A DNA stretch of 64,000 nucleotides from Candidatus Alcyoniella australis (GTDB taxonomy: Bacteria; Lernaellota; Lernaellaia; JAVCCG01; Alcyoniellaceae): NCBI GenBank assembly GCA_030765605.1, contig JAVCCG010000059.1, forward strand, positions 1 to 64,000. Direction: 5' to 3'. The position numbers and the translations under genes were made by a program. The notes under the pieces were generated by a model. The model had not been told where the DNA came from. It did no database searches and was given only the letters and a program-made list of their open reading frames with translations. Positions 38,999 to 43,064 of this stretch are shown one piece after another; the stretch's first letter is position 1, and the number at the start of each line of letters is the position of its first letter.

Positions 38999-39439
38999 TC
39001 AGGCGTTGACGGCGAACTCGACATAGTTGTTGGCCACGCTCATTGCCCGCGGCCCACAGCCGGTAAGGCACAGCTCGCATCCCACACAATCCTCGGGATG
39101 GTAGACGATCTTCATCGTCTTGCGGTCGTCGATGCGCAGGGCCGCCGAGGGGCAGAATGTGACGCAGGCGCCGCACTGCGTACACTTGTGCTCGTCGTAG
39201 GCGATCTCCTGTTCGATCCCCTCCACGCGCACGCCCTGGGACGTGAGGAACTCCATCGCCTCCTCGTACTTGTGCTGCTCGCCCCAGAACTCGAGGATAA
39301 TCAATCCCACCTGGCGCGGCAGAATCTTGGCCTTGAGGATCGAAAACGTCAGGTCGAACTTGCGGCTGAGCTCGCAGACCACAGGCCGCTGCAGGTTAGC
39401 CTTGTTGACCTTGAGCACTTTGATCTTGTGAATCTCCAT
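38999..39439 (-). CDS. NIL domain / 2x[4Fe-4S] ferredoxin (homocysteine-forming cluster)
   Basis: A 146-aa protein with an N-terminal NIL domain (about 1-75), a small fold also found on methionine ABC transporters. Two [4Fe-4S] motifs follow: CTQCGACVTFCP (about 86-97) and CVGCELCLTGC (about 118-128). In methanogens and sulfate reducers this protein works with DUF39 to insert sulfide into aspartate semialdehyde, making homocysteine; the ferredoxin is thought to supply electrons. It is the last gene of the SAM-riboswitch operon, 3 bp after UPF0280. Cytosolic. Confidence 0.9.
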   Translation of the reverse strand: MEIHKIKVLKVNKANLQRPVVCELSRKFDLTFSILKAKILPRQVGLIILEFWGEQHKYEEAMEFLTSQGVRVEGIEQEIAYDEHKCTQCGACVTFCPSAALRIDDRKTMKIVYHPEDCVGCELCLTGCGPRAMSVANNYVEFAVNA

Positions 39440-39442
39440 CGA

Positions 39443-40180
39443 TCACTCCCCTTGAAGATGCGTCAGCTCGATTTCGCCCAACGCACCGATCTTGTCGTTG
39501 ATAATCACCAGCGCACCGCGCACGCCCTCGAGCCCCACGATCTTGTGTAGCGCCGCGTCAACCTCGCCTGCGTCGCCCACCATGTTGCCCAGTGCCGTGG
39601 CGCAGGCGTCGGCCAGGGCCGCGTCGTCGGCCACTACGCAGGCCGCGTCGGTCGCTCCTTGCGACAGGCTGTGCCCCACGCTGGCCGAAGATGTGGCTAC
39701 GCCCGCGGGCAGGCGCGAGGCCTCAATCTTCAGTCCGATTTTGCCCGACAGCGTAGAGCCGCCGGCGAACACGCCGACGCTGAGTTCGCAATCGGCCGCA
39801 AGGTACAGATCGCCGCCGTTCTCCACGATCACCACAGCGCAGTCCTGCGCCAAACGCTCGCCCACGGACTGGGCGATCGACCCGGCCACTGCTGCCATCG
39901 GCCCGGTGCCGGACTGCTCCGCGGCGTGGATCATCCGACGAACCGTGGGCGGCGCAAAGGGAACCGGCGGCAACGGCGCCAGCGATTGGGCGAACTTCGA
40001 ATCGCGCTCGATGGCCGACTGCACCTCGTCACGCGCCTTGAGCAACGCCTCCAGCGCCTCGCGCTCCATGGGCCGCGAGGCGATCACCAGCAGGTCGGAC
40101 TCGCCCGCGTGCAACTCAAAGCGTTGCAGCGCACCCAGGTCGGCCTCGAGCTCGTGGCGATAGACGCGCGGCTGGTACAT
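39443..40180 (-). CDS. UPF0280 family protein (ApbE-like)
   Basis: A 245-aa protein of UPF0280/COG2122, related to the ApbE flavin-transferase fold. Motifs include ESDLLVIASRP, SGTGPMAAVAGSIAQSVGER, VIVENGGDLYLAAD and AGVATSSASVGHSLSQGATD, the conserved core of the family. It lies between DUF39 (TGATG overlap upstream) and NIL-ferredoxin, the arrangement seen in anaerobes that make homocysteine from aspartate semialdehyde and sulfide. Its exact chemical role in that step is not settled. Confidence 0.9.
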   Translation of the reverse strand: MYQPRVYRHELEADLGALQRFELHAGESDLLVIASRPMEREALEALLKARDEVQSAIERDSKFAQSLAPLPPVPFAPPTVRRMIHAAEQSGTGPMAAVAGSIAQSVGERLAQDCAVVIVENGGDLYLAADCELSVGVFAGGSTLSGKIGLKIEASRLPAGVATSSASVGHSLSQGATDAACVVADDAALADACATALGNMVGDAGEVDAALHKIVGLEGVRGALVIINDKIGALGEIELTHLQGE

Positions 40181-41340
40181 CAGCGCGGCAGAAGCTGTTG
40201 AGCCTCGCCCAGGGTGAAGTTACCCGTGGCGATCCAGTCCTTGAGCAGCGCCGCGATCTCGCGCGCCTTGGGACGCGAGGACATGCTTGCCGTGGGGACC
40301 GTCTTTTCGCGGAACTCGACCTGGCCCGAGTACAGCTCGGCGTAGCTGACCTCGGCCAGGTCTTTGGCCTGACCGTTGGGATAGTCCTCGGAGTAGTCGA
40401 CGATCTGCGTCAGCAGCTCGCTGTCCGTGGCCGCAGCCTGGCCGCAGATCGCCTGGTCGATGATCGGGATCGGAATTCCCACGCCCATGGTCATCGACAC
40501 GCCGTAGCCCAACAGGCTGGTCGGCCGCAGCCAATCGGCGCTCATCCCCTTGAGGTCGCCTTGCAGCGCCAATGTTCCGGCGCCGTTCTTGGGCGCCCCT
40601 CCGGCCGTGCGCTCGACCTGCGGGTTGTGCTGGGTGCCGTGGCCCACGACCCAGCCCACGCCGCCGCCGAGGAAGATCTTGGTTCCCAGGCCGATGGTGC
40701 GGTATTCCGGATCCTTGAGCATCGGGCTCAGTGCTCCGGCGCTGGAGAAGTTGATATTGCCCGCGTCGGGCTTGAGGATCCCCATGTAGGTGTAGATCGT
40801 TTTGGCGCTGAGGTTCACTGCCGCCGGGTAGTTCTGGTAGCAGTTGCGCGGGTTGTACAGCCAGGCGTTGGGCAGCTGATCGAGGGTCAACTCCTTGATC
40901 AGGCTGCGGCCGGGGTAGCAATCGGTGCCGTACGATACGGCCCGCAACGTGACCTTTTTGCCGGTTAGCAGGTCGTGGATCACGTGGGCGCCGCCGTACT
41001 CGAAACGTCCGGGGAAGACCTTGTTGGTCGGGTCGTCCTCGGCCAGCTCGGTGGCGCCGATGAATACGTCGACCGCAGCGATTCCGGCGTAGGCCGGCAC
41101 GTCGTTGAGCCAGGCCTTGGAGGCGCGCAGCCGCGGAGTGGCGTGGCCGAAGTTGATGAACGCGCCGCTGGAACACATCGGTCCGAAGGTGCCGGTGGTC
41201 ACTACGTCCACCCGGCGCGCGGTCTTCTCCAGCCCGTCCTCTTCGACTGCCGCGGCCAGCTCCTCGGCTGTGAGCACCACCACGTCGCCCGTTGCGATGC
41301 GCTCGTTGATCTGCTTGATCGTTCGCAGTTGTTCGCTCAT
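40180..41340 (-). CDS. DUF39 homocysteine-biosynthesis protein
   Basis: A 386-aa member of COG1900/DUF39 (HcyBio). Typical segments are TGTFGPMCSSGAFINFGH with Cys56, GGAHVIHDLLTGKKVTL, SYGTDCYPGR, INFSSAGALSPMLKDPEYRT and IFLGGGVGWVVGHGTQHNP. The family takes part in direct sulfur insertion into aspartate semialdehyde to form homocysteine, bypassing O-acylhomoserine; conserved Cys residues are thought to carry sulfur. The usual C-terminal CBS pair of archaeal versions is absent; the chain stops after the core. Controlled by the SAM-I riboswitch upstream, which fits a methionine-supply role. First gene of the three-gene operon. Confidence 0.92.
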   Translation of the reverse strand: MSEQLRTIKQINERIATGDVVVLTAEELAAAVEEDGLEKTARRVDVVTTGTFGPMCSSGAFINFGHATPRLRASKAWLNDVPAYAGIAAVDVFIGATELAEDDPTNKVFPGRFEYGGAHVIHDLLTGKKVTLRAVSYGTDCYPGRSLIKELTLDQLPNAWLYNPRNCYQNYPAAVNLSAKTIYTYMGILKPDAGNINFSSAGALSPMLKDPEYRTIGLGTKIFLGGGVGWVVGHGTQHNPQVERTAGGAPKNGAGTLALQGDLKGMSADWLRPTSLLGYGVSMTMGVGIPIPIIDQAICGQAAATDSELLTQIVDYSEDYPNGQAKDLAEVSYAELYSGQVEFREKTVPTASMSSRPKAREIAALLKDWIATGNFTLGEAQQLLPR

Positions 41341-41390
41341 CTGCCGACCACCTCCCTAGCCCGCGTCATCGATCAATGTTCCGGGCCACG

Positions 41391-41420
41391 AAAAATCCCC
41401 TTCCCAAAAGCAGGAAGGGG
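41391..41420 (-). terminator. Riboswitch-controlled intrinsic terminator
   Basis: On the minus strand CCCCTTCC (41420-41413) pairs with GGAAGGGG (41404-41397), followed by A and five T. It lies between the SAM-I aptamer and the DUF39 start codon, as an expression platform that ends transcription when SAM is bound. Confidence 0.88.
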
Positions 41421-41444
41421 ACGCGTCTGATCGCTTGCCCCAAC

Positions 41445-41552
41445 CTTATCTCCCGGGATAAACCCCGTTGGAATTAGCACCAGCGCGGAACGCGGTCGCC
41501 CCGCCGGTTGCTGCGGCTTCGAAGGGCCAATCCCTCCACCGCTCTTGATAAG
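41445..41552 (-). promoter_or_regulatory. SAM-I (S-box) riboswitch
   Basis: A 108-nt aptamer. P1 is CTTATC (41552-41547) with GATAAG (41450-41445). S-box core elements follow in order on the minus strand: AGAGCGGTGGAGGGA, TTGGCCC, CGAAGCC, GCAACC, and GGTGCTAATTCC for the P3/P4 region. These agree with the SAM-I consensus almost base for base. Binding of S-adenosylmethionine should allow the downstream terminator to form and shut off the homocysteine operon. Confidence 0.96.
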
Positions 41553-41567
41553 ACCAGATACCGGCAC

Positions 41568-41597
41568 ACCCTAAAGCCGGGTCGGGAGGATTGTCAA
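41568..41597 (-). promoter_or_regulatory. Promoter of the homocysteine operon
   Basis: Perfect -35 TTGACA (41597-41592), then TAGGGT (41573-41568) at 18 nt. The predicted start would fall about 8 nt before the riboswitch P1 stem. Confidence 0.55.
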
Positions 41598-41666: not shown

Positions 41667-43064
41667 TTGGAACCGCCCGCAACGCCCGCGCTCGGAACGC
41701 GCCGCAGGCTGCTGTATTCCAGCGGCGAGCTGGGCCTGACCCTCACGCCCGCGGTGGTCGGCGGGTGGCTGATCTACTTCTATACCGGCGGCGAAAATCC
41801 CTCGCGGGCTCTGGTCACCACCGCGGCGCTGGGGCTGATCGTTTTCCTGTCGCGCATCGGCGAGGTCGTCTCCAATCCGCTGATCGGTTTTTATTCAGAC
41901 CGAATTCGCACTCCCTGGGGCCGCCGCGTGCCGTTCATCGCACTGGGCGCTCCGCTGCTAAGCCTGTTCTTCGTACTGCTGTGGTTCCCGCCGCACGACC
42001 ATCCGAGTTGGACCAACTCGATCTTCCTGGGCCTGGTGCTAAGCTGCTACTGGGTGGCGCATGTAGCGGTGACCGCGCCCTACTTAAGCCTGATGCCCGA
42101 GATCGTGCGCAACGCGGACGAGCGCGTAAAGACCTCGATCTGGATGGGCTACTTCGACATCCTGGGCATGGTGCTCGCCGGGGTAGGCGCCGGCCTGCTG
42201 ATTCAGCACGGCTCGGCCGGGATCGAGCTGGGGCCGCTGCGTTTGGCCGACGGCTACAAGCTCACCGGTTTGGTCGCCGGGCTGATCAGCCTCGCGGCGC
42301 TGATCGTCGCGGTGCGCTCGGTGCGCGAGAGTCCGCACGGCCCGAGCAAGGAAGTGGGCTACAGCCTGTGGCGCTCCATGGCCCAATGCTTCCGCAATCG
42401 CGGATTTACGCCGTACATCCTCGCGGCCTCGTTCTTCCGCATCGGCGTTGACACCACCGTGGCGGTGATCCCGTTTCTGGTAGTGCGCGTGGCGGGCTAC
42501 AGCGCGGGGACCGCGGGCGCGTTGCAGGCGATGATCATTCTGGGCGCGGCCGCGCAGTTTCCGCTGGTGCGCAGACTGGCCTCGCGCTTTGGTAAAAAGG
42601 CGTTGTACTGCACGGGCCTGCTAGGGTTCGGATTGCTGCTGCCGCTGATCTACTTCAGCGGCAGCAACCCGTTCCTCGGACGCGCCGTGGCCGGACTGCT
42701 CGCGGCCCTGGGCTCCGGGCCGCTGTCCCGCGGCGAGATAACGCTGATCCACTTTACGCTGGTCTTCGCCTGTTGCACGTTCTTCATTTCGACGTTCTTC
42801 GTGCTGCCGCGTGCGATCTTCGCCGAGGTGATCGACCACGACGAGAGCCTCACCGGCCTGCGACGCGAGGCGATCTACTACGGCATCGAGGGCATGAGCC
42901 ATCGGCTGGCCGCGGCGCTGACTCCGTTGATCTACACCCAGCTGATGGCCGGACTGGGTCAGACCAGCGCAAACCCGACGGGGATATTGCTCTCATTCCC
43001 CGTGGCAGGGCTGGCGCTGTTCGTCGGATTTGTTATCTTCTTGTTCTATCCGTTTCGCAGTTGA
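41667..43064 (+). CDS. MFS transporter, GPH (MFS_2) type
   Basis: A 465-aa permease with about twelve membrane helices. The start is TTG at 41667 with AGAGGA 6 nt before; no ATG fits. GPH-family features are an early YSSGELGLTLTPAVVGGWLI, the loop SNPLIGFYSDRIRTPWGRRVPF (cation/sugar symporter pattern D-R-x(3-5)-G-R-R) split across helix 2-3, and PYLSLMPEIVRNADERV. Such carriers import glycosides or related solutes with H+ or Na+. It is the first gene of a three-gene unit with a ceramidase-like and an alkaline-phosphatase-like protein, suggesting uptake or turnover of an amphipathic substrate. Confidence 0.87.
   Translation: MEPPATPALGTRRRLLYSSGELGLTLTPAVVGGWLIYFYTGGENPSRALVTTAALGLIVFLSRIGEVVSNPLIGFYSDRIRTPWGRRVPFIALGAPLLSLFFVLLWFPPHDHPSWTNSIFLGLVLSCYWVAHVAVTAPYLSLMPEIVRNADERVKTSIWMGYFDILGMVLAGVGAGLLIQHGSAGIELGPLRLADGYKLTGLVAGLISLAALIVAVRSVRESPHGPSKEVGYSLWRSMAQCFRNRGFTPYILAASFFRIGVDTTVAVIPFLVVRVAGYSAGTAGALQAMIILGAAAQFPLVRRLASRFGKKALYCTGLLGFGLLLPLIYFSGSNPFLGRAVAGLLAALGSGPLSRGEITLIHFTLVFACCTFFISTFFVLPRAIFAEVIDHDESLTGLRREAIYYGIEGMSHRLAAALTPLIYTQLMAGLGQTSANPTGILLSFPVAGLALFVGFVIFLFYPFRS

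What the first reader, a model, noticed from the sequence alone, without database searches (positions are those of the whole stretch)
40180..41597. SAM-I riboswitch and terminator over the DUF39 homocysteine operon
A textbook S-box aptamer with attenuator lies before DUF39, UPF0280 and NIL-ferredoxin. This ties the little-studied sulfide-insertion route directly to SAM feedback and supports a role for UPF0280 in the same pathway.
Basis: partly seen in the sequence, partly recalled or inferred. Interest (0 to 1): 0.7.

Follow-up and report, generated by a model that had tools for sequence, protein, structure and literature searches.

The report
SAM riboswitch controls homocysteine-making operon
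A standard SAM-sensing RNA switch sits in front of three genes that make homocysteine directly from sulfide, so this bacterium probably shuts off that unusual route when SAM is plentiful; the parts are known, and the genome shows no recognisable enzyme for the next step to methionine.

Summary
A SAM-I aptamer lies at 41554-41443(-) (RF00162, 86.3 bits, cut-off 44.4), followed by a 12-bp terminator and then a tight operon: DUF39/HcyBio, UPF0280/COG2122, NIL-ferredoxin (41340-38999). A relative in another family has the same switch, terminator and operon; nine of the 80 closest DUF39 loci elsewhere (eight Bacillota, one Syntrophaceae) carry SAM-I directly upstream. The genome has one DUF39 and no detectable MetA, MetX or full-length MetB/MetY-type enzyme, the only one of seven phylum genomes without the last. 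SAM repression of the sulfide-insertion route is the best reading; SAM binding is untested.

Corrections: (1) the COG2122 requirement is already shown genetically in Desulfovibrio; (2) this UPF0280 has Ala where 13 of 13 aligned relatives have Cys; (3) neither MetH nor MetE was detected, so the step to methionine is unexplained here; (4) archaeal L-ASST carries a CBS domain reported to sense SAM, absent here, so the RNA is the only SAM sensor identified. No paper linking SAM-I to DUF39 was found in the open-licence library. Real, modestly interesting, new member of a known kind.

The parts
41443..41554 (-). SAM-I (S-box) riboswitch aptamer
   Evidence: RF00162, 86.3 bits, full-length model match
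41395..41422 (-). intrinsic terminator hairpin; the T-rich tail follows at 41394-41385
   Evidence: 12-bp stem + T-rich tail; same element at the same place in G006
41412..41446 (-). predicted antiterminator: AGG (41446-41444) and GGGG (41441-41438) pair with CCU (41414-41412) and CCCC (41420-41417), taking bases from the 3' strand of P1 (41450-41443) and from the 5' half of the terminator
   Evidence: Folding of partial transcripts and forced-helix energies; computed, not probed
40180..41340 (-). DUF39 / HcyBio (L-aspartate-semialdehyde sulfurtransferase type), 386 aa, no C-terminal CBS extension
   Evidence: PF01837 480 bits, residues 20-377; Cys56 and Cys141 invariant in 82 sequences; only PF01837 copy in the genome
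39443..40180 (-). UPF0280 / COG2122 protein, 245 aa; start codon overlaps the DUF39 stop (TGATG); Ala162 (codon 39697-39695) where relatives have Cys
38999..39439 (-). NIL-domain ferredoxin with two 4Fe-4S motifs, 146 aa, starts 3 nt after the UPF0280 stop
   Evidence: PF09383 NIL and Fer4; eight Cys invariant in 17 sequences

Best explanation
A transcription-attenuating SAM-I riboswitch gives SAM feedback control over a three-gene operon for direct homocysteine synthesis. When SAM is scarce, bases at the 3' side of P1 pair with the 5' half of the terminator and RNA polymerase reads through. DUF39 (Cys56 the likely essential cysteine) then puts sulfur onto aspartate semialdehyde, NIL-ferredoxin supplies electrons, and UPF0280 helps sulfur delivery. 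When SAM is plentiful, the aptamer holds P1, the terminator forms and the operon is off. Shown here: aptamer, terminator, gene families, operon layout, recurrence in other genomes, and absence of detectable MetA, MetX and MetB/MetY-type enzymes. Inferred: SAM binding, the switching itself, the chemistry (from characterised relatives), and that the homocysteine is used for methionine.
For: Full-length RF00162 match. Terminator in place, repeated in G006 with the same operon order. Free transcripts ending in the terminator's 5' half favour the antiterminator over P1 (ensemble -66.8 against -63.5 kcal/mol), while full-length RNA favours P1 plus terminator (-78.2 against -73.0). SAM-I directly upstream of DUF39 in nine further genomes, eight of them Bacillota with DUF39, NIL-ferredoxin and UPF0280 clustered. 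The window's genome lacks MetA, MetX and any full-length PF01053 enzyme, whereas all six other phylum genomes have a full-length PF01053 enzyme. DUF39, NIL/ferredoxin and COG2122 are genetically required for homocysteine in D. vulgaris (PMC5764234).
Against: No MetH (PF02574, PF02607) or MetE-type (PF01717) methionine synthase was detected in this genome, though all six relatives have PF02574. The UPF0280 lacks the conserved Cys. The assembly is in 157 contigs and 98% complete, so absences are not proof. In G006 the energy difference between antiterminator and P1 is under 1 kcal/mol. No SAM-binding or expression data exist.
Confidence: 0.84

Rival explanations
1. The switch senses SAM, but the operon's product is not mainly for methionine in this organism: the COG1900 chemistry makes another thiol, or homocysteine for another use, and methionine is imported.
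For: No recognised methionine synthase in the genome. COG1900 proteins can serve other aldehyde-to-thiol reactions, such as CoM synthesis (PMC12068725).
Against: The DUF39 matches HcyBio over its full length and only weakly the CoM-type TIGR03287 (123 bits against a 364 cut-off). A SAM switch fits methionine supply. The missing synthase may be unassembled or of an unrecognised type.
Confidence: 0.09
2. The aptamer is functional but acts mainly by another route, for example translation or mRNA stability rather than attenuation.
For: A translational layout appears to exist at the other SAM-I site in this genome, where a Shine-Dalgarno-like sequence overlaps P1.
Against: A strong terminator follows this aptamer, and the DUF39 ribosome site lies beyond it, about 50 nt from the terminator.
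Confidence: 0.04
3. The RNA is a relic that no longer switches, and the operon is expressed constitutively.
For: No functional data; the antiterminator is short, with a 2x2 U-U internal loop.
Against: The aptamer scores far above cut-off with its core intact, and aptamer plus terminator are kept in G006, whose DUF39 is only 57% identical.
Confidence: 0.03

Closest known systems
SAM-I (S-box) riboswitch with transcription attenuator, RF00162
   Same: Aptamer, core sequence, and terminator directly downstream; sits over a sulfur amino-acid gene
   Different: Target is the DUF39 sulfide-insertion operon rather than the classical methionine genes or metK; no such target was named in the papers searched
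L-aspartate semialdehyde sulfurtransferase (MA1821-MA1822) of Methanosarcina acetivorans
   Same: DUF39/COG1900 protein plus NIL-ferredoxin partner; two conserved cysteines
   Different: The archaeal COG1900 subunit has a C-terminal CBS domain reported to allow allosteric control by SAM (PMC12068725); the window protein lacks it and has a SAM riboswitch over the operon instead
DUF39 / NIL-ferredoxin / COG2122 set of Desulfovibrio vulgaris Miyazaki F (DvMF_1464, DvMF_0262, DvMF_0044)
   Same: The same three protein families, each required for methionine-independent growth (PMC5764234)
   Different: The locus tags show the three genes are scattered there; here they form one operon under a SAM-I switch

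Membership tests
SAM-I riboswitch (RF00162) | Covariance-model match above gathering score over the whole aptamer | tested here: met
   86.3 against 44.4 bits, model positions 1-108
SAM-I riboswitch (RF00162) | Expression platform downstream (terminator with competing antiterminator) | tested here: met
   Terminator; antiterminator supported by energy calculations only
SAM-I riboswitch (RF00162) | Specific SAM binding and SAM-dependent termination | not testable with these tools
   Needs in-line probing or in vitro transcription
L-aspartate semialdehyde sulfurtransferase (DUF39/HcyBio, COG1900a) | Full-length HcyBio domain | tested here: met
   PF01837 480 bits, profile 1-349
L-aspartate semialdehyde sulfurtransferase (DUF39/HcyBio, COG1900a) | Two near-universal cysteines (Cys54, essential, and Cys131 in MA1821) | tested here: inconclusive
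   Cys56 and Cys141 are invariant in 82 sequences, but MA1821 itself was not aligned here
L-aspartate semialdehyde sulfurtransferase (DUF39/HcyBio, COG1900a) | NIL/ferredoxin partner | tested here: met
   PF09383 + Fer4, eight cluster cysteines, same operon
UPF0280 / COG2122 | Sequence family membership | tested here: met
   PRK04334.1-3 E 4e-74, though 249 against a 271-bit cut-off; 2O34 E 3e-34
UPF0280 / COG2122 | Cysteine of the CTSS/CGSS motif, conserved in the relatives aligned here (whether it is required for function was not established) | tested here: not met
   Ala162 in the window; Cys in 12 of 12 locus homologues and in 2O34

The most novel reading that the evidence does not exclude
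This lineage replaced both the acylhomoserine steps and the known methionine synthases: homocysteine comes only from a SAM-I-controlled DUF39 operon whose UPF0280 works without its conserved cysteine, and an unrecognised enzyme completes methionine. SAM sensing of the route would sit in the RNA in these bacteria and in a CBS domain in archaea.
Probability: 0.25. Interest if true: 0.62.

Novelty: new member of a known kind. Interest (0 to 1): 0.42.

Why it matters
DUF39 was a domain of unknown function until recently and its regulation in bacteria is little described. A recurring SAM-I switch over the whole operon independently places all three genes in SAM/methionine supply, gives a simple transcriptional read-out for testing the pathway, and contrasts RNA-level SAM feedback in bacteria with reported protein-level (CBS) feedback in archaea. 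The missing methionine synthase and the cysteine-less UPF0280 in this genome are concrete, testable gaps.

Tried and rejected
DUF39 by tblastn in plasmids: no match. A regular-expression scan for SAM-I in the DUF39 loci found only one of the nine true sites, so it was discarded in favour of cmscan. The PF01053 hits in the window's genome were rejected as MetB/MetY: all are 20-35 bits over about 70-190 positions, against 454-530 bits for the best hit of each relative. A recent transfer of the operon from Bacillota was considered because identity to a Bacillota DUF39 (65%) exceeds that to G006 (57%); the tree pairs window with G006 at only SH-aLRT 88 with two long branches, so ancestry is left open. 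Mutual exclusion of CBS domain and riboswitch could not be tested: none of the 81 homologues extends far past the domain (tail at most 29 aa). The compact SAM-I variant was sought in viral contigs by pattern and one copy in plasmids by similarity: nothing.

Full report
OBSERVATION. cmscan of the whole window gives a single Rfam match, the SAM-I aptamer RF00162 at 41554-41443 on the minus strand, full length, 86.3 bits (cut-off 44.4), E 4.7e-19. The core motifs are intact in the printed alignment. A 12-bp terminator stem with a T-rich tail follows at 41422-41395. The ATG of DUF39 is at 41340, preceded by GGGAGG (sequence). Folding the 181-nt leader gives -81.5 kcal/mol, z -2.6 against dinucleotide shuffles.

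GENES. DUF39 (40180-41340) matches PF01837 HcyBio over the whole profile with 480 bits; the third gene has NIL and 4Fe-4S domains. The middle gene matches the UPF0280/PRK04334 family, E 4e-74, slightly under the NCBIfam cut-off, and the solved structure 2O34. Stop and start of genes 1 and 2 overlap (TGATG) and genes 2 and 3 are 3 nt apart, so one transcript is expected.

MECHANISM. Folding growing transcripts and forcing alternative helices gives the usual S-box logic. RNA that ends in the 5' half of the terminator prefers the antiterminator (ensemble -66.8 kcal/mol) over intact P1 (-63.5); once the whole terminator is made, P1 plus terminator (-78.2) beats the antiterminator (-73.0). SAM holding P1 should therefore give termination. 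These are calculations on unliganded RNA without tertiary contacts. In G006 the preference for the antiterminator is under 1 kcal/mol.

CONSERVATION. Only seven genomes of this phylum are held. G006, in a different family of the same class, has the same aptamer (80.6 bits), terminator, and DUF39-UPF0280-NIL/ferredoxin order, with DUF39 57% identical. Of the 80 closest DUF39 loci in the named genome collection, nine have SAM-I directly upstream: L018, L019, L054, L072, L078, L081, L085 and L095 (all Bacillota) and L027 (Syntrophaceae). All 80 were covered: 50 genomes and the other 30 loci; two of them have under 150 nt of upstream sequence. A tenth is possible: the genome of L029, sister of L027 in the tree, has a canonical SAM-I with terminator at a contig end (L107). 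In the eight Bacillota, DUF39, NIL/ferredoxin and UPF0280 are clustered. On the tree the SAM-I label is strongly clustered and needs three changes.

PATHWAY CONTEXT. The window's genome (98% complete, 157 contigs) has one DUF39, no MetX and no MetA. PF01053 gives only 20-35-bit partial hits there, whereas each of the other six phylum genomes has at least one full-length enzyme at 454-530 bits. So no acylhomoserine route is detectable. G006 has DUF39 and also a PF01053 enzyme. Unexpectedly, the window's genome has no PF02574 or PF02607 domain (MetH) and no PF01717 (MetE), although all six relatives have PF02574. Chance absence from a 98%-complete assembly is possible for one gene; otherwise the last step is done by an enzyme these families do not recognise, or methionine is imported.

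UPF0280. That role is already documented: in D. vulgaris Miyazaki F the COG2122 mutant is rescued by methionine and its fitness profile correlates with DUF39 at r = 0.98 (PMC5764234). In the window protein, residue 162 is Ala (codon GCC, 39697-39695) where all 12 aligned homologues have Cys, and the 2O34 protein also has Cys there. The cited paper reports a proposal that COG2122 helps form the DUF39 persulfide; if this cysteine carried sulfur for that, the window copy could not do so in the same way. The importance of this particular cysteine is my inference.

COMPARISON WITH KNOWN SYSTEMS. In M. acetivorans the DUF39/COG1900 subunit has a CBS domain reported to bring allosteric regulation by SAM, and the NIL domain is reported to bind methionine (PMC12068725). 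The window protein ends nine residues after the HcyBio domain, and the 81 homologues have tails of at most 29 residues, so no CBS domain fits. NIL is retained. SAM feedback here thus appears to sit in the RNA leader. Searches of the open-licence literature combining DUF39, COG1900, HcyBio or MA1821 with riboswitch, and the sulfide route with SAM riboswitch, found no paper that names this target; two riboswitch and methionine regulon surveys were searched by keyword and do not name COG1900 (PMC4239095; PMC3766115). Subscription papers and regulon databases were not available, so priority is not established.

VERDICT. Observation confirmed; SAM feedback on the DUF39 route well supported by sequence; UPF0280 claim not new and here weakened; completion to methionine unresolved.

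Noticed in passing
G000:C128:1697-1786(-) = L003; and G005:C7:95261-95353(+) = L015 1501-1593: Two compact SAM-I elements (55.9 and 50.3 bits) in genomes of different families, with P4 almost absent, very alike (for example GAACGATGGAGG-CACCATGAAC), with a Shine-Dalgarno-like GGAGG overlapping the 3' strand of P1, standing before unrelated genes: an orphan 157-aa ORF in G000 and a serine resolvase (PF00239) in G005, where an AbiEi/AbiEii pair lies upstream on the other strand. Looks like translational SAM control, or a mobile RNA leader, over non-methionine genes. Free-RNA folding is not better than shuffles.
   Followed up: partly
window 39695-39697 (UPF0280 residue 162): A cysteine conserved in 13 of 13 aligned COG2122 relatives is Ala here.
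   Followed up: yes
G000 whole genome: No MetH (PF02574, PF02607) or MetE (PF01717) family member, although all six relatives in the phylum have PF02574.
   Followed up: partly
L109, L118, L119, L120 (Desulfobacterales-type genomes): Lower-scoring SAM-I aptamers (53-63 bits) precede met-type genes: PLP sulfhydrylase-like (L109, L119), a MetE-like ORF (L118), MetK-like (L120), while DUF39 in the same genomes has no SAM-I. Gene names are read from the translations by eye.
   Followed up: no
window 41667-43064(+): Divergent MFS_2 sugar-type transporter starting about 110 nt from the aptamer's 5' end; no evidence that it shares regulation.
   Followed up: no
PMC11124144 (Oleidesulfovibrio alaskensis G20): Its single SAM-I riboswitch is reported upstream of a hypothetical protein; it could be compared with the compact variant above.
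   Followed up: no
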